Positions 9,785 to 61,095 of a stretch of 64,000 nucleotides of DNA are shown here, one piece after another. Each line of letters begins with the position of its first letter. The stretch's first letter is position 1. A program made the translations under genes and the position numbers. Source of the DNA: Norana najaformis (lineage: Eukaryota > Annelida > Clitellata > Crassiclitellata > Hormogastridae); contig OZ029915.1 of assembly GCA_964023275.1 (NCBI GenBank), positions 16,436,712-16,500,711 on the forward strand, written 5' to 3'. Under the pieces are notes generated by a model that saw only the letters and a list, made by a program, of their open reading frames with translations, searched no databases and was not told the DNA's origin.

Positions 9785-11001
9785 TCAGTAACTGTCAGCG
9801 ACCTTTGATAGGTCGTCGACGGCGCTTCTGTTGTGTCGCAGGTCGTTGAGCATTCTCTCCATGTTCTTCAGTTCACTATTGTTGGGAGTTGCTTCGTTCG
9901 TGGCTGGCGATGGCTCCGAGGCCGACGATGCCTTAGCGGTCGTCGTCATGAGTAGCTGGTTCGTGGGGCATGAGGGACTCGACGGATAGACACGACCTCG
10001 ACGTAGCAGACAGACCTCTGCCGACATCGGACTCACCGATGCTCCTCCGAAACCGGTGGCAGAGCCGAGGACTTCCAGTGACGGAGAATCGTCGAGAAGA
10101 TTCGCCTTCAATGGGAGGCGATAAGGAACGAATCTTTGAGAGGCGCCGGAAGTTTGAGACAAGAGTGGCCCAAGACGAGAGACTGCTGGGTTACATGTGC
10201 CACCAGCAGATGGCAGGATGCGATCATCTCCTCGGAGACTGTTGATGTTACAAGCAGCCGTTGCTGCCGCTGCAGCCGCATAGCTCGCCTGCAGCCAGTT
10301 TCCAAAGTCCAAAGGGCCACCGAAGATGAGTCCGCCGCTACTTGGGTGGAGAGAAGCGGAACGTGATTCTAAGCTTTGCGATGCGTTACCTGGAAAGGAC
10401 AACGTGGATGAGTACTGACGCTGGAAAAGCATATGGAAGGGGAAAGAATGGGCTGATCCGAGATAAAGCCCAGACTGGTAGAAGTATGGGAGCAGTGGAT
10501 GGAACACAGGCGAATCGTGTAGTCGACCTAGCCGAGGACTTTCGGTGTCGTTACGTCGACTCTTGACTTCGGACTGTATATTATAGTGACGTCTGTCATC
10601 GAATCTCGTGGCTGGAGAACCATCATCGAAGACTGGTGGCTCTTTCATGACATCGCCGGCACCATCAACAGTGGAAATGCCATCTGGATGACTGTGGCTG
10701 ATAACAGACCAAGAAGAGGGGCTGAGGCGAATTGCACTGGCCTCATTCTTCCACAGCTCCATGTGCTTCTGGACGTGACGCTCGTCCGGTTGCGTCCAGT
10801 GGTCGTTGTCTGATTGTGTTGTTGGCGACGGATGCTCGACCTTGAGAGGAGCTTTGATCGAGTAGTCCCGTGGTAGCTCGTAGCCTCGTCCTCCTCCGAC
10901 TGGTTTTCTGAATCTGGCGGTCAATCCTAACTCTTTTTCGTCTTGTTGCTCATTTCCGCCGCCTTCATCCATTCCCGATTCATGCGCGTCCAAACAGTAG
11001 T
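9785..11001 (-). CDS. Tbx2/3: Tbx2/3 exon 6 (C-terminal repression region and stop)
   Basis: This last exon encodes about 405 residues after the DNA-binding domain and ends at a TGA at 9787-9785. It holds ESGMDEGGGNEQQDEKELGL near its start, then YSIKAPLKVEHP. A hydrophobic block, HPLLPYFYQSGLYLGSAHSF, matches the LPYFYQ/GLY block of the TBX2/TBX3 repression domain. The end, NNSELKNMERMLNDLR, resembles the SELxxIxRLVxGL C-terminus of vertebrate TBX3. An Ala run (AAAAAATAA) lies midway. The acceptor is uncertain. CCGCTTAG/AC at 11003-11002 and TATGAG/TA at 11036-11035 both keep the phase left by exon 5; I prefer the first because the second sits in AT repeats. No AATAAA was found close downstream. 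Confidence 0.88.
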
Positions 11002-11036
11002 CTAAGCGGACCACAACCATCTCATTACACAATACT

Positions 11037-18984: not shown

Positions 18985-20480
18985 CCTCTCTGCCCACAGT
19001 CTTCATCATACTTGGATATTCCTGTTCTGTGTTTGGCAGAGACGTGGCTAGACGAGAACTCTGCCGACCCCAGACGACTAAAGACACAGGGCTATCAGGT
19101 AGCCTACTGGAGCACGCTAGACCTAAACAGCCTGAGAAGAACCTTAGAAGGACCCCATACGACTAAAGACACAGGGCTACCAGGTAGCCTACTGGAGCAC
19201 GCTAGACCTAAACAGCCTGAGAAGAACCTTAGAAGGACTCCAGACGACTAAAGACACAGGGCTACCAGGTAGCCTACTGGAGCACGCTAGACCTAAACAG
19301 CCTGAGAAGAACCTTAGAAGGACCCCATACGACTAAAGACACAGGGCTACCAGGTAGCCTACTGGAGCACGCTAGACCTAAACAGCCTGAGAAGAACCTT
19401 AGAAGGACTCCAGACGACTAAAGACACAGGGCTACCAGGTAGCCTACTGGAGCACGCTAGACCTAAACAGCCTGAGAAGAACCTTAGAAGGACCCCATAC
19501 GACTAAAGACACAGGGCTACCAGGTAGCCTACTGGAGCACGCTAGACCTAAACAGCCTGAGAAGAACCTTAGAAGGACTCCAGACGACTAAAGACACAGG
19601 GCTACCAGGTAGCCTACTGGAGCACGCTAGACCTAAACAGCCTGAGAAGAACCTTATAAGGACAAGGAACGTGGCTAACGAAACTTAGCATCAACAGCCC
19701 GCAGTCCTTTGAACATCTTTGTGACGCGTCATGACTGAGGGTTCGTCATTTATCACCCTATTGCTCTATTGTTATGGGTCTACCGCTGACACTCTGGACT
19801 TCTTTAACAAACTGCTCTAAGGTCTGGCGGTACTGAAGAACCCTGTGGTCGTGACGGGCGAGATATCAACATCGCTTTGATCGCCCGTCCGATCCACTGT
19901 GCACACAGGTCATTGACTTCGTAGATTCGTTCGGTTTCACGAAACACACGTCAGTGAAGCAACTCATGAGTCGCGGGAGGCATCCTAGACGCTATCGCAA
20001 CTAGGAGCGACCTTCTAGCTCGGACTACTGATATGACTGATACCGGTCTGTCAGACCATCGGCTGATCAAATGGTACACAGACCGACGATTACGACCTTC
20101 ATTGCTCCCGGCCATGGAATCTTGCCGCTCTTCGGAGCATTTTCAAGTCGACGAATTCCGCCCAGATTTCCAGAAGTCGCCTCTATGCGACATGGATTAG
20201 ATTAAATCTCTGGACGTCAACCAACTGGTCTGTGTCTACAGCAACGTCATGGCCAACATTCTTGATAGGTTGGTTCCTCTTCGCGAGGTCACCATCCATA
20301 AGAGATCATCCGATCCATGGTTTGATGTCGTCTGCCGAGACCAGAAGAAGCGAGCGCGACACCTAGAGCGACATTTTCTCAGTGCTCAGATTCAGAAGAC
20401 AGATTCCTGTGACGTGCAAAATTGCTTGAAGAGCTTTGGCAGTATCCCAGCAGCATCAGCGCAAGCACTAAGAGTAACAT
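18985..20480 (+). mobile_element. L2/CR1 LINE fragment, endonuclease and pre-RT region
   Basis: The plus strand reads LDIPVLCLAETWLDE, an APE-type endonuclease motif, then RLKTQGYQVAYWST. An 85-bp tandem array (19076-19663) interrupts the coding sequence. Beyond it come QVIDFVDSFGFTKHTSVKQL, matching the DFVDSFGLTQH block, and ANILDRLVPLREVTI with SSDPWFDVVCRDQKKRARHL, matching the pre-RT PWFDEECRxAKRRxRxLER block. The RT itself is absent. The frame shifts several times. It lies in Tbx2/3 intron 3, antisense to the gene. Confidence 0.85.
19076..19663. repeat. 85-bp tandem array, seven copies, alternating pairs
   Basis: Units starting GACTAAAGACACAGGG begin at 19076, 19161, 19246, 19331, 19416, 19501 and 19586, exactly 85 bp apart. 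The joint between units alternates between CCCCATACGAC and CTCCAGACGAC from the second unit on, giving a 170-bp higher-order unit. Copies are almost identical elsewhere, so growth was recent. The unit derives from LINE endonuclease coding sequence. Confidence 0.97.
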
Positions 20481-30959: not shown

Positions 30960-31297
30960 TAGACAGAATTCAATCTTTTCTCCGCTTGTCCGGAAAGTTT
31001 CACCTGGAACGGATGAATGTGCAAGGTCGAACTTACTGAATCGTGCGGCCACGGTAAAACTGAGAGTAACTCAGAGAATTGAAGATGTTGATATCGTGGA
31101 ACGATGCACCTATCGGTAATTGCGACAACTTAAGACAGCGCCAGTGACCATTCTATTGAAAGAACACAACGTTCCTTATGCTGTTCCGGTCTCAATAAGA
31201 AGCCCATTTTCAATTATCCCAAAAGTGGAGCAACGGTTGAAAAGAATTCACGAAATGGATGTAATAGACCAATGTTTCAGCAGATGGAGCCCAGTCG
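30960..31297 (+). mobile_element. Ty3/gypsy fossil fragment (start of RT)
   Basis: The plus strand reads TAPVTILLKEHNVPYAVPVS, then RSPFSIIPKVEQRLKRIHEM. These match the region before and into the RT fingers of Ty3/gypsy pol. The fragment is short and broken and ends where the 13-bp array begins. Confidence 0.7.
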
Positions 31298-31765
31298 TCT
31301 ACGGAGGATGTCTACGGAGGATGTCTACGGAGGATGTCTACGGAGGATGTCTACGGAGGATGTCTACGGAGGATGTCTACGGAGGTTGTCTACGGAGGAT
31401 GTCTACGGAGGATGTCTACGGAGGATGTCTACGGAGGTTGTCTACGGAGGATGTCTACGGAGGATGTCTACGGAGGATGTCTACGGAGGATGTCTACGGA
31501 GGATGTCTACGGAGGATGTCTACGGAGGTTGTCTACGGAGGATGTCTACGGAGGATGTCTACGGAGGATGTCTACGGAGGTTGTCTACGGAGGTTGTCTA
31601 CGGAGGATGTCTACGAAGGATGTCTACGGAGGATGTCTACGGAGGATGTCTACGGAGGATGTCTACGGAGGATGTCTACGAAAGATGTCTACGGAGGATG
31701 TCTACGGAGGATGTCTACGGAGGTTGTCTACGGAGGATGTCTACGGAGGATGTCTACGGAGGATG
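31298..31765. repeat. 13-bp minisatellite, exactly 36 copies
   Basis: TCTACGGAGGATG is repeated 36 times without an indel (468 bp). Six units (7, 11, 18, 22, 23, 33) carry GGTTG in place of GGATG, and units 25 and 30 have GAAGG or GAAAG. Pairs 7/18, 11/22 and 22/33 are 11 units apart, suggesting a 143-bp duplication step. Since 13 is not a multiple of 3 and the unit lacks stops, all three plus-strand frames stay open and read a 13-residue repeat. The long frames are therefore not evidence for a gene. Confidence 0.98.
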
Positions 31766-35908: not shown

Positions 35909-37200
35909 GAACAAAGATAATCCGTGAGTGGGCTTGTAGTCCAACATATGAGTAACCGCTGAATGTTACGCCTGACCAAAAAGGCAATACTGGAACAGAA
36001 AAATTATTGTGAGCACTAGCCATATACGCCTAGATTATGACCATGTATAAGGTAATGAATTTAGTATATTATTAGGCTAAGCTAGTTGTAGGTCGCCTGT
36101 AGATAGAGACTACGAAGTATATAAGCGGTGATATTAAGTCTAAAAAGTAGAATCGTTTGCCTTGCTCTACTATTAGAATTTGGCGGAGAAACAGGCGACG
36201 ATTCCTTGTTTGTCGGTACAGCCTCATCTACATCTGAGCATTGTCGAGACTGTCTCCTCGGGAAGACCTTTCGCACAACTAGACACAGCCAATGAGCCAA
36301 CCCGACAATCGAACTACTGGGCGCTAACCTCGTAGTGGCAGGCAAACTTCTCCTGCCATTACACCTGCGAACGCTGCGCACTCTTCGGGATCAGCACTGT
36401 TGCCACGTCACCGTCACTTTATTATCAGCTTTGTCTTTCCATCCTCTCTCAGGGACCCTAACTTCTAAAGGCCGATGATTCTCACACCTCATCTTTCAGC
36501 CACTCCGTCGCTCACCGCATACAATTTTTCAAGGACCTCTCCTTCCCCAGTGCTTGCGCAAGGTGCAGCCTCTGCTGGTTTGGACTCAGGCGCCGTCATG
36601 GCTGGAAATCCTACTACCTTCTACCCAGCACCATTCGCCGGGTGCAAACTAAAGGTCGTGCTAAAGTTATTTAAAATCTCTGGACTCTGATATACGTTGC
36701 GCAAGATGGATCAGGAAGCGAAGCTAGCCGCCTGCTGCTGGAAGACTGACCACGATACCACAGGCCATTTCGCCACTGTTCTGATAATCTGCCGGAAACC
36801 CTCGTGGACTATTACGGCTCCACGGCGTCCAGCGCCTAATGGGGTGCAGCTGAAATATGGCAAATGAAGCAACTCTAAATAAGAGAATGAATTAGTAAAT
36901 CCTGAAGCATTTGCCATCCGAAAATTATTGCCCCGTCGGACACGATATGCGTCAGTTGAGCAGAAATGCTTGACAATCGTGTAAAGAATTGAGACTCGAG
37001 AAATGTTTGCATGGTAAAGAATTTATTCGAAAACAAGACATCAGCCAGTACAGCATTTAGGACAATGCAACCCCAAAGTGGTACAATAATGAGATGAGTT
37101 TTGGCGATGCAACCGTATCAATTTGTGGTGCGGTCTGCTTACGAGAAGGATGCTGTTCAGGCTGACTTCTTTAGTATAAATTCATGTTAAGAGGCGCAGT
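35905..37200. other. Tbx2/3 intron 2, nothing recognised
   Basis: Several frames of 60-100 codons on both strands (for example 36082-36381 minus and 36475-36690 plus) show no domain. The 36.2-36.9 kb part is GC-richer than its surroundings. Confidence 0.45.
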
Positions 37201-37202
37201 AT

Positions 37203-37696
37203 GTGCAATATGATTGGTTATGTGTAATATGATTGGTTATGTGTAATATGATTGGTTATGTGTAATATGATTGGTTATGTGTAATATGATTGGTTATGTG
37301 TAATATGATTGGTTATGTGCAATATGATTGGTCATGTGTAATATGATTGGTTATGTGTAATATGATTGGTTATGTGCAATATGATTGGTTATGTGTAATA
37401 TGATTGGTTATGTGTAATATGATTGGATATGTGTAATCTGATTGGTTATGTGTAATATGATTGGTTATGTGTAATATGATTGGTTATGTGTAATATGATT
37501 GGTTATGTGCAATATGATTGGTCATGTGTAATATGATTGGTTATGTGTAATATGATTGGTTATGTGCAATATGATTGGTTATGTGTAATATGATTGGTTA
37601 TGTGTAATATGATTGGATATGTGTAATCTGATTGGTTATGTGTAATATGATTGGTTATGTGTAATATGATTGGTTATGTGTAATATGATTGGTTAC
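37203..37696. repeat. 19-bp minisatellite, 26 copies, with 190-bp higher-order repeat
   Basis: GTGTAATATGATTGGTTAT is repeated 26 times without an indel. Variant units (GTGC..., GGTCAT, GGATAT, AATCTG) recur in the same order: the ten-unit block at 37317-37506 is repeated at 37507-37696 and differs only at the last base. Each unit has GATTGGTT, a CCAAT box on the minus strand, which is the strand of Tbx2/3. It lies 1 kb 3' of exon 2 in intron 2. Confidence 0.98.
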
Positions 37697-37699
37697 GTG

Positions 37700-39645
<1,946 letters not shown>

Positions 39646-40775: not shown

Positions 40776-40872
40776 ATTCTGTATACATCTGAGGTAGGCC
40801 TAACTCTCTTTTAACAAGTTTAGACCTTTACAGCAGGATAACCGCGTAAAAAACTTCGATTCTGCGACATAC

Positions 40873-41312
40873 CTTCCTGATTTAGTGATGACCATTTCCG
40901 TTTCCATTTCATGGAATTTTTCCCATAGCTCCTTGGACTCAAGTTCCACCTTTGGATCATCATCCGCTTCTTCGTCGTTGGCTTCCAGCGGTGGCGCCAT
41001 TCCTCCCAGACCTCGAAATCCCGACCCAGACAGTCCGAATGGTAAGAACATCTCAGTAGAACCGGCGAATGGCCGAACCCCGCCAAAATCTCCAGTCGAA
41101 GAGTCGAAGGCCGAAGGAGTGGCCGTAGACGAGAGGGTGCCTGCTCCAGCAGCTGTGGCTGCGGCGGCGACTGCGATCGCTCGATGAAAGACGGCTCCGA
41201 CTGAATGGCCTAGAAAAGCCGACGCATTCAGGCGGTGGTGAAAATCAGTCGACCGAGCGGGGAGTGGCGGAGGAGGAGGAGGAGGCAGTAGAAATGGATT
41301 GTACGCAGCCAT
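40873..41312 (-). CDS. Tbx2/3: Tbx2/3 exon 1 (start codon, N-terminus, beginning of T-box)
   Basis: The first ATG at 41312-41310 opens a 146-codon frame: [20 protein letters not shown], with an eight-Pro run. A short Ala-rich region ([12 protein letters not shown]) follows, then an acidic stretch [19 protein letters not shown] that leads into the T-box with [19 protein letters not shown]-xPF near the start and DDPKVxLExKELW before the T-box are typical of TBX2/TBX3. The donor is GGAAG/GTATGT at 40872, leaving two bases of the Arg codon that exon 2 completes. The ATG is chosen because it is the first in frame and gives the family N-terminus. Upstream untranslated exons cannot be excluded. Confidence 0.95.
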
Positions 41313-54317: not shown

Positions 54318-54822
54318 TGAGCTTATGTTGCTTATATATTGACTGAGCTTATGTTGCTTATATATTGACTGAGCTTATGTTGCTTATATATTGACTGAGC
54401 TTATGTTGCTTATATATTGACTGAGCTTATGTTGCTTATATATTGACTGAGCTTATGTTGCTTATATATTGACTGAGCTTATGTTGCTTATATATTGACT
54501 GAGCTTATGTTGCTTATATATTGACTGAGCTTATGTTGCTTATATATTGACTGAGCTTATGTTGCTTATATATTGACTGAGCTTATGTTGCTTATATATT
54601 GACTGAGCTTATGTTGCTTATATATTGACTGAGCTTATGTTGCTTATATATTGACTGAGCTTATGTTGCTTATATATTGACTGAGCTTATGTTGCTTATA
54701 TATTGACTGAGCTTATGTTGCTTATATATTGACTGAGCTTATGTTGCTTATATATTGACTGAGCTTATGTTGCTTATATATTGACTGAGCTTATGTTGCT
54801 TATATACTGACTGAGCTTATGT
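54318..54822. repeat. 26-bp tandem repeat, 19 nearly identical copies
   Basis: The unit begins TGAGCTTATGTTGCTTATAT and ends ATTGAC. Nineteen full copies plus a partial one show a single substitution (ATACTGAC) in the last unit. No spacers separate the units, so this is a young minisatellite and not a CRISPR array. Confidence 0.98.
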
Positions 54823-54829
54823 AGCTGCT

Positions 54830-58799: not shown

Positions 58800-60479
58800 C
58801 ATAATAAGACTGTTGACCCATCTATATAGTTAACATCCCATGAGAACTTTAGAAAACCCGGATTGAACGGAGTGAGGACAACTCTAGAGAAATTTGGTTG
58901 ATGGAACTTGCTCTTATACTTTGTGTAGTCTGGTAGTTAATAAAACGTAGCATGCAACAATTAGCCCTACAAAGCGAACACCGTCTACAACAAATTAAAA
59001 GCCCAGGTCGGACGAGATGTACGTTTGCAGCTAACCGCAATCATAGCAGGTGGTGGTTACTGCGCGAACAGATCGCCGACAGGTAAGCAGTTCAGCAGAT
59101 ACTGTGAGCTGTTGCAATATCTTGTAAGCAACTGTTCACAGCTACACGCAGGCAGTCTTAGTTTACTGCAGCTCATCACCCAACTCACAAGCACTCTACA
59201 AATAATATTAGACTCCTTGACTTTTGTCGTATACCCCTGAGAAAGACTGTGCTTTTCAATGGCTCTACCTGCTCTTTAATGTCATTCAAGTCCCGACTCA
59301 AAATTCGTCTGCGTGAACTCGAGTATCCAGCAAAGCGTACGTTTTCGTCTCTCGCATCTCGACTGGCTGCGGTGCGAGTTGGTTTGCACAGTTGTTTAGC
59401 TCATTTGGCAGCTAACCCGATTTTGGTCGAATGTTAATAAAATAATTATCTTTCGAAAAGAAGAGTTTCTTCATTGTTAAAAAATGTTTCACCCGAACGC
59501 ACACGCGAGAATAAGCCTTGTGACCTATCGAAACGTAAATATTTCCATGCGTTACATAGACGTGCAGGTTTTGTACACGCATAGGCCAGTATGGTTGTGG
59601 ACCCAACAGGTGGGCCAAGTGCATACGTCGTGTGAGCTCAAGTCGATGCATATTGTTTATATACAGACGGCCGCCGTATATAGATCAATCCATTGCTACC
59701 GGCGTAAGTAGAACTATAAGCAATTCTAAGGCAGATATAGTAGGCCTATATGCACGCACTGTATTCGTGCCGAGCAGCGCCCGGTGCAGTATACATATAG
59801 AGTTCTATAAATAGTCACCTAGGCCTACACGAGAGAACATATTATCGGCGAACAGGAACGAAATTCGTTTTAAAAATCGATTATACCGCAGAACATAAAT
59901 TAACCCAGCATTTGTTTAACTATTTTAAGTAGATAGAACAGAATTTATATAGAATTTAAGTTTATTTTGGTCGTACGTTAAGCGTTGACCCTGCATTCGA
60001 CCTATACTCGCGGATATTGACTTTCAGGTGACTTATGACAGGACAGATCCAGATTCGACCTAATTCTTAAGACCAATAATTTACCTTCACTGACCTCGAC
60101 TGCGCTCGGATTACGAAAACGTAGAAGAATAATTCATCAGGTAAGAATAATACATTGTCTCACAGCAAATAAGGTAAGAGTAAGAGACATGCCTTCGCGC
60201 CTCTATAGAATTCCACGGAGGGACAGTGGGTTGATTTGGCTCAAATGGCCTGCTTACCGCCCATCTAAGTAGGCCTACTGATTTCAGGGTGGCTTAACAT
60301 CAATGTGCTTCTGAACGTCGACCCTAACGCGCAAAGCCGCCAAATAGTATGTAATATGCCTCAAACTGTCCATCTAATAGGTAAAAAACTGAATGGTTCT
60401 GCTACATTAGTGGGGTATACACCTCCACTTTTTCGTGAATTAGAAAGAAAACTTAGCGGTTCTGCTGCATTAGTTCTCT
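58800..60479. other. Intergenic, nothing recognised
   Basis: Three TAGGCCTA words (59741, 59819, 60268). GGTTCTGCTxCATTAGT occurs twice near 60393 and 60458. Frames are short and without motifs. Confidence 0.5.
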
Positions 60480-60487
60480 CTCTATAC

Positions 60488-60790
60488 CAGCTGTCCTCAA
60501 ACGTTTTGGTCTGAGGACCCTTTACACTCTTAAAAATTATTGAGGACCCTAGAGAGCTTTTGTTTATGTGAGCTATACCTATCGATATTTACCGTAACAG
60601 AAATTAAAACTGAGAAATTAATGTAATTAATTCATAACAAAATAATAATAACATACCCGTTATATGTTAACATAAATAATACAGTTTTGGTGAAAAGTAA
60701 CTATATTCTTATGAAAATAGTTTAGACCTCGTGGGCCCCTGAAATGGTCTCGGGGACCGCCAGCGGACGCCACTTTGAGAACCACTGCTG
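60488..60790. mobile_element. hAT-type MITE with mammalian Charlie-like ends
   Basis: A 303-bp non-coding element. The left end is CAGCTGTCCTCAAACGTTTT. The right end, read on the minus strand, is CAGCAGTGGTTCTCAAAGTG. Together they give the CAG(N)GGTTCTCAAA terminal inverted repeat typical of hAT elements. Flanks CTCTATAC (60480-60487) and GTGTATAC (60790-60797) agree at six of eight bases, fitting an aged 8-bp target duplication, with one base of end uncertainty. The interior includes CTTTACACTCTTAAAAATTA and TATCGATATTTACCGTAA, which from memory closely follow the mammalian non-autonomous Charlie family MER30. No transposase is present. Confidence 0.8.
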
Positions 60791-60834
60791 TGTATACATG
60801 TGTATGTATATGTGTATTTGTATGTGTGGACATT

Positions 60835-61095
60835 TACTATAGCACCTTTTAAGTACCTCACAAAAGTGCTACTCCCTTTGCTATCCTAAATGATGCTAGA
60901 GTCATTAATAAGAACAAAACGTTCGCAATAAGCGAATAGTGCTGAGATAACTGAGTTACCAGTGGCATAGCTCCCGCAGAAACGCAGAGCCCGACCGACG
61001 GATCCCCCCCCCCATTCATAGTTGATTTAGACACCATGTTCCCCGGTTCCTGGACCCCTTTGCGTCGACAAAGAGAAGCGAGGACACTTGCAGCA
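60835..61095 (+). repeat. Dispersed repeat of unknown class, copy B
   Basis: Partner of 15555-15870 (see that entry). It contains TATAGCACCTTTTAAGTACC, GAGTTACCAG, CCGACGGATCCC (followed by a C run), GACACCATGTTCC and GTTCCTGGACC. Confidence 0.5.

What the first reader, a model, noticed from the sequence alone, without database searches (positions are those of the whole stretch)
60480..60797. hAT MITE resembling mammalian Charlie/MER30 elements: possible horizontal transfer
The terminal repeats (CAG..GGTTCTCAAA) and interior words such as CTTTACACTCTTAAAAATTA and GAGGACCC..AGAGCTTTTGT match, from memory, a mammalian non-autonomous hAT family. Vertical inheritance of a non-coding MITE between an invertebrate and mammals should have erased this. 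Cross-phylum hAT transfers (SPIN, OC1 and related families, involving mammals, a triatomine bug and a pond snail) are established, so this may be another case. Contamination is unlikely if the flanks are host-like.
Basis: partly seen in the sequence, partly recalled or inferred. Interest (0 to 1): 0.78.

Follow-up and report, generated by a model that had tools for sequence, protein, structure and literature searches.

The report
Mammal-like jumping gene in an annelid
A short non-coding piece of DNA in what is probably an annelid worm's genome is one of a few hundred old copies of a cut-and-paste jumping gene whose rebuilt sequence looks almost the same as one known, from memory, in mammals; if a database check confirms this, the jumping gene crossed between distant animal groups.

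Summary
The element is real: window 60488-60787, 300 bp, imperfect CAG...CTG inverted ends, a decayed 8-bp target duplication. It belongs to a family of roughly 250 or more dispersed copies, seen on all 17 contigs of a 608-Mb genome. The host is most likely an annelid (haemoglobin-linker genes found; arthropod cuticle and mollusc haemocyanin families gave no hit). Copies lie on average 10-13% from their consensus, are star-like, and target nnnTAnnn. Longer copies (about 440-825 bp) and a decayed longer one show that the window element is an internal-deletion derivative of a hAT transposon. By my working the interior was recalled before any host interior was seen, but no call records that: it was first typed, after. 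No vertebrate sequence could be reached, so the cross-phylum step is unverified. Vertical descent, contamination and chance fit badly. Best reading: a non-autonomous Charlie1-like hAT family that entered this lineage by horizontal transfer, a new case of a known kind. MER30 is probably the wrong relative.

The parts
60488..60787 (+). non-autonomous hAT element (MITE), 300 bp; its + strand begins at the end that lies behind the transposase coding part in longer copies
60488..60501 (+). terminal inverted repeat at the transposase-3' end (CAGCTGTCCTCAAA; family consensus CAGCGGTTCTCAAA)
60774..60787 (-). terminal inverted repeat at the other end (reverse complement CAGTGGTTCTCAAA)
60480..60487 (.). 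left target-site duplication CTCTATAC (fits nnnTAnnn)
60788..60795 (.). right target-site duplication CTGTGTAT (5 of 8 match the left one)
60488..60707 (+). part that aligns with the first ~220 bp of the longer host copies (non-coding end, perhaps with the last ~20 codons of the transposase, antisense)
60708..60787 (+). part that aligns with the last ~80-100 bp of the longer copies; the junction at about 60707 is the internal deletion

Best explanation
The element is a dead, 300-bp internal-deletion derivative (MITE) of a hAT transposon of the Charlie/Buster type. It was once cut and pasted in trans by the transposase of full-length relatives, into sites of the form nnnTAnnn. Shown here: a family of roughly 250 or more copies, star-like and on average 10-13% from consensus, with duplicated 8-bp targets. 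Also shown: longer members that carry a hAT-like C-terminal coding stretch, and one decayed copy that reaches further into the coding part. Inferred: mobilisation in trans, and that the family entered this (probably annelid) lineage by horizontal transfer, because its consensus, non-coding end included, is about 94-96% identical to the mammalian Charlie1 family as I recall it. Donor, direction and route are unknown; both hosts may have been infected from a third source.
For: Copies on all 17 contigs among the 100 of 114 places listed; reversed control word 0. A fit to the mismatch classes gives p = 0.108 and about 249 copies. Mean K2P to consensus 0.110 for 30 of 40 fetched copies (0.120 for the same 30 by another alignment) and 0.125 for 20 further copies. 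Pairwise/consensus ratio 1.85, star-like. TSD match 6.1 of 8 in the 26 of 68 loci where both ends were placed, shuffled 3.5, maximum 4.5 in 2000 shuffles. The host-only consensus of 9 long copies holds [66 protein letters not shown] on the reverse strand; a query of nearly these letters has its best PDB matches in transposase chains, among them Hermes, weakly (E 0.024-0.087). Recalled Charlie1 text against host consensus: 528/564, and 98/102 at the other end. Gaps apart, 160/167 for positions 1-170 (non-coding in both), 69/70 for 171-240, 303/311 beyond. The host's T-box exon is 82/90 identical at the protein level to TBX3 of the PDB.
Against: The mammalian side rests on memory, not on a database. 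The recalled text was typed in a call only, after the window copy and host interiors had been shown; that its interior was set down earlier stands in my working alone and cannot be audited. The protein query was drawn up with that memory in mind. Pfam's hAT dimerisation model scores 19.2 bits, below its cut-off of 21.4. Five pieces of the upstream frames of the decayed long copy match no hAT family in Pfam, and one of them nothing in the PDB. The consensus frame is broken on both sides of the stretch quoted. Distribution in other animals could not be tested. The copies' age (10-13%) looks younger than mammalian Charlie1 is recalled to be, which needs a long-lived intermediate source or a slow host rate.
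Confidence: 0.73

Rival explanations
1. An ordinary annelid hAT MITE family, vertically inherited; the likeness to mammals is limited to short hAT-typical motifs and the rest is false memory.
For: The host holds many other hATs and many transposase relatives at about 30-55% protein identity, some of which may be decayed members of this family (150 of 290 candidates scored).
Against: By my working (no call records it) the interior of the recalled text was written before any host interior was fetched; it matches the later host consensus at 303/311 aligned bases. The host consensus is closer to the recalled text (217/229) than the window copy is (186/218), as expected if both descend from one source.
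Confidence: 0.18
2. The family is the OC1 (OposCharlie1) element, already known to have jumped among tetrapods, a triatomine bug and a planarian, here in one more host.
For: OC1 reached 12 lineages including planaria, with copies on average 2.2-10.5% from consensus (PMC3621081). Its transposase ends 201 bp from the terminus (2370 of 2571); here the stop lies at 175 in the host consensus and 243 in the recalled text, so spacing does not separate them.
Against: The recalled match is a human repeat, and human is not among the OC1 hosts in the table. The OC1 sequence itself could not be read.
Confidence: 0.08
3. Contaminating mammalian DNA in the assembly.
For: None found.
Against: Copies on all 17 contigs of 19-64 Mb, each differently decayed, with their own flanks and target duplications. 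The consensus has its own block that the recalled text lacks (AATTAATGTATTAATTCATAAC).
Confidence: 0.01

Closest known systems
Charlie1 / Charlie1a (human hAT families named in Table 5 of PMC5753468; sequence recalled only)
   Same: Recalled text 94% over 564 columns and 98/102 at the other end; same order of non-coding end and C-terminal coding part
   Different: Host consensus has its own block at about 130-165 (AATTAATGTATTAATTCATAAC) and CAGC in place of CAGG at the end; its last frame runs on to a stop at 175 instead of 243; host copies average 10-13% from consensus; only a few hundred copies
OC1 (OposCharlie1), PMC3621081
   Same: hAT with MITEs by internal deletion; horizontal transfer among mammals, lizard, frog, bug and planarian; similar copy ages
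Buster1/Buster2, PMC4298943
   Same: hAT, Buster-type insertion bias, MITEs by internal deletion; the paper's title reports transfers in invertebrates and bats; TIR CAGGGCTTCTTAAAC of similar type
   Different: TIR differs; their subterminal words TGGGTCGCG and TGCGGCTC do not occur in either host consensus
MER30
   Same: human non-autonomous hAT
   Different: derivative of Charlie12 (PMC5753468, passage); the start of MER30 that I recall does not match

Membership tests
hAT superfamily | 8-bp target-site duplication | tested here: met
   26 of 68 loci had both ends placed (the window copy was not among them); mean 6.1 of 8 matching, shuffled 3.5, maximum 4.5
hAT superfamily | short terminal inverted repeats CAG...CTG | tested here: met
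   family consensus 14 of 14, window copy 11 of 14
hAT superfamily | transposase with C-terminal hAT dimerisation region | tested here: inconclusive
   Pfam PF05699 19.2 bits, below cut-off 21.4; phmmer to transposase chains E 0.024-0.087, Hermes among them. The query was partly guided by recall, though the host-only consensus gives nearly the same letters
hAT superfamily | catalytic core of the transposase | tested here: inconclusive
   L102 holds decayed upstream frames that look right by eye; five pieces match no hAT model in Pfam, one of them nothing in the PDB
Buster-type hAT | target consensus nnnTAnnn (definition recalled) | tested here: met
   T at position 4 in 20 (left) and 25 (right) of 26, A at position 5 in 22 and 23 of 26
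Charlie1 family | at least 80% identity over 80% of length to the Dfam/Repbase consensus | not testable with these tools
   no vertebrate repeat library; recalled text gives 94% over 564 columns
horizontally transferred family | identity higher than that of host genes of the two hosts | tested here: inconclusive
   recalled-text non-coding DNA 160/167 against 82/90 protein identity of one T-box exon to PDB TBX3; one side is memory
horizontally transferred family | patchy distribution among hosts | not testable with these tools
   I found no other animal genome among the collections offered; whole-genome search says G000 has no relatives here
OC1 | 90-95% identity to published OC1 consensus | not testable with these tools
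   sequence is in a supplement, and the cap for supplements is 0

The most novel reading that the evidence does not exclude
Charlie1, a hAT family known as an ancient mammalian repeat, also invaded an annelid lineage by horizontal transfer. That would make annelids, or an unseen partner shared by both, part of the source from which mammals were infected.
Probability: 0.6. Interest if true: 0.68.

Novelty: new member of a known kind. Interest (0 to 1): 0.55.

Why it matters
The OC1 paper dates the transfers of DNA transposons among vertebrates and invertebrates that it reviews to about 15-45 My. A Charlie1-type family in an annelid would carry such traffic to one of the older mammalian families (age recalled), and would offer countable copies in both hosts to test donor, direction and timing. 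In the listings of nine paper searches I saw no title or abstract start that reports Charlie1 outside vertebrates (three of them, 65, 94 and 95, list only 20 of 114, 10 of 42 and 15 of 26 papers).

Tried and rejected
Rfam on 60440-60840: only weak matches to the GT-rich stretch behind the element. Plasmid and phage collections, distant blastn: no match. Exact words: 0 in viral contigs and 0 in prokaryote contigs. By transposase C-terminus: 11 and 57 pattern matches, none confirmed. Looking for the sequence printed in papers: 0 papers. The 30 hAT loci fetched of the 150 places of the Pfam search carry none of this family's DNA (empty output). A fully open autonomous copy was not found: a deep interior stretch gave 2 places, but that search missed L102, which also carries it (78% over 82 bases), so it is not exhaustive; L102 is broken by many stops. 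One search was a mistake of orientation (it searched the wrong part of L077); it gave 3 places, one of which led to L101/L102. L063 first looked autonomous; its 2.2-kb middle is another transposon nested inside. A spacing argument against OC1 was dropped. Phylum: mollusc haemocyanin domain 0 and arthropod cuticle domain 0, both with the tool's warning that nothing rang anywhere; annelid haemoglobin linker domain 29 matches, controls 0, best piece E 1.4e-54 to haemoglobin linker chain L1.

Rows left out: one search dropped 10 of 40 copies (4 too long, 6 truncated or interrupted). One search used 9 of the 25 places (L063 and eight others). One search took 20 of the listed places with 0-1 mismatches that had not been fetched, which may lean slightly to low divergence; several matches are partial (50-302 bases counted). 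The copy-number fit counts the 14 unlisted places as two-mismatch places and takes sites as independent, but some two-mismatch words recur, so subfamilies exist. L004 and L041 share flanks and are probably one insertion duplicated.

Full report
What is there. Window 60488-60787 is a 300-bp element with imperfect inverted ends (11 of 14 bases), flanked by CTCTATAC and CTGTGTAT. The genome (G000, 608 Mb, 17 contigs) holds many relatives: 40 places, the window copy included, were scored out of 353 first-look candidates, and the main matches of the other 39 have 75-86% identity to the window copy. A 26-base word gives 60 forward and 54 reverse matches with up to 2 mismatches, against 0 for the same word read backwards; the 100 places listed touch all 17 contigs. 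The classes of 0, 1 and 2 mismatches (15, 36 and, counting the unlisted ones, 63) fit a per-site divergence of 0.108 and about 249 copies. The fit takes sites as independent, though a few two-mismatch words recur; copies that lost the word are not counted.

Copies. I aligned 30 of 40 fetched copies; the others were too long, truncated or interrupted. Their majority consensus is 328 bp, with ends CAGCGGTTCTCAAA matching 14 of 14. Mean identity of copies to it is 89.9%, K2P 0.110 (range 0.074-0.187), and 0.097 for the window copy; the multiple alignment itself gives 0.120. These copies were picked by similarity to the window. Twenty others, picked by a short word that was then left out of the count, give 0.125. 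Pairwise distances are 1.85 times the distance to consensus, close to the 2 of a star, so one burst followed by decay is likely. In 26 of 68 loci both ends could be placed (the window copy was not among them); the 8-bp flanks match at 6.1 of 8 on average against 3.5 when shuffled, and the target reads nnnTAnnn. I recall this as the target type of the Buster branch of hAT transposons; the defining paper is not held.

Where it comes from. Longer copies of about 440-825 bp (L060, L071, L077, L078 and L094 among others) have both ends and contain additional middle sequence. The consensus of nine long copies, read on the reverse strand, holds [66 protein letters not shown], with frame breaks on both sides. 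A query of nearly these letters has its best PDB matches in transposase chains, Hermes among them, at E 0.024-0.087, and reaches Pfam PF05699 weakly (19.2 bits, cut-off 21.4). The window's + strand therefore starts at the end behind the transposase coding part, and the MITE is what remains after loss of the middle (junction near 60707). One copy, L102 (C1:59250900-59254900), matches the consensus over 657 aligned bases at 88.9%. It continues upstream, to about 1.7 kb from its end, with frames that look by eye like the rest of such a transposase, broken by many stops; Pfam does not recognise five pieces of it as hAT. A deep interior stretch gave 2 places and L102 is a third. No working source was found, without an exhaustive search. 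The host also has many more distant transposases of this type, about 30-55% alike in the C-terminus, some with long open frames.

The mammalian likeness. I found no vertebrate genome or repeat library within reach, so I used a lead: the mammalian Charlie1 text as I remember it. Against the host consensus it gives 528 of 564 aligned columns (93.6%) at one end and 98 of 102 at the other; against the window copy 186 of 218 and 75 of 92. Leaving gaps aside, positions 1-170, non-coding in both, match at 160 of 167; 171-240, where the host frame runs on to a stop at 175 while the recalled one stops at 243, at 69 of 70; the rest at 303 of 311. The best of 200 shuffles scores 16 against 945. By my working, the interior was set down before any host interior was fetched, but no call shows that: the text was first typed, after searches had displayed host interiors, and after the window copy had been read. 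This is memory, not a test. The nearest human relative by this lead is Charlie1/Charlie1a; MER30 is a derivative of Charlie12 according to a passage of PMC5753468.

Host. The window carries exons of a T-box gene of the TBX2/3 type; 82 of 90 residues of one exon agree with TBX3 of PDB entry 1h6f. The genome has 29 matches to the annelid haemoglobin-linker family, the best one closest to linker L1 chains in the PDB (recalled as earthworm). The arthropod cuticle family and the mollusc haemocyanin domain gave none, with the tool's caution that nothing rang anywhere. So an annelid is most likely; the species is unknown.

Reading. Chance and contamination fail on the copy pattern. Strict vertical descent would need non-coding DNA to stay about 95% alike since the split of annelids and mammals, while one T-box exon differs at 8 of 90 residues. 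If the memory is right, horizontal transfer is the only ordinary explanation, as for OC1 (parts 1 and 2 of 3 of PMC3621081 read) and Buster1/2 (passages of PMC4298943). OC1 itself remains possible, since its sequence could not be read. Direction is open. At assumed neutral rates of 2 to 5 per billion years, which I did not measure, 11-12.5% means roughly 20-60 My. That is younger than Charlie1 activity in mammals as I recall it and would call for a third, longer-lived carrier.

Literature. Passages only were seen of PMC5753468, PMC11614815, PMC4298943, PMC9004415, PMC2689173 and PMC6006921. PMC7070016, a screen of 307 vertebrate genomes (start of abstract), has no word beginning with hAT or Charlie in its main text.

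Noticed in passing
L063:2460-4640: A second DNA transposon is nested inside a long copy of this family: ends made of repeated TATGAGCGAT-like words and a FLYWCH-like zinc-finger frame (both named by eye), flanked by a repeat of GGATTCTC.
   Followed up: partly
L011-L021 (11 loci): Eleven dispersed copies of another hAT share an open frame of exactly 81 aa with the same score over the dimerisation region, apparently a recently multiplied, frame-broken derivative of the element with 620-627 aa frames at L010 and L023.
   Followed up: no
window 31297-31765, 37200-37702, 54318-54826, 19066-19663: Long, very even tandem arrays: 13-bp unit x 36, 19-bp x 26.5, 26-bp x 19.6, 85-bp x 7; the 13-bp array is open in all three + frames and so gives long ORFs that are probably not genes.
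   Followed up: no
window 38563-38940 and 40800-41312, minus strand: Exons of a T-box gene of the TBX2/3 type; 9785-11032 (-) is a further long open frame that may belong to it, without a Pfam match.
   Followed up: partly
window 60788-60830: A degenerate TGTA/TGTG microsatellite begins right behind the element, and its first bases form the right target duplication.
   Followed up: no
L004 and L041: Two copies share flanks and are the closest pair (K2P 0.075), so they sit in a larger duplicated repeat and are probably one insertion.
   Followed up: partly
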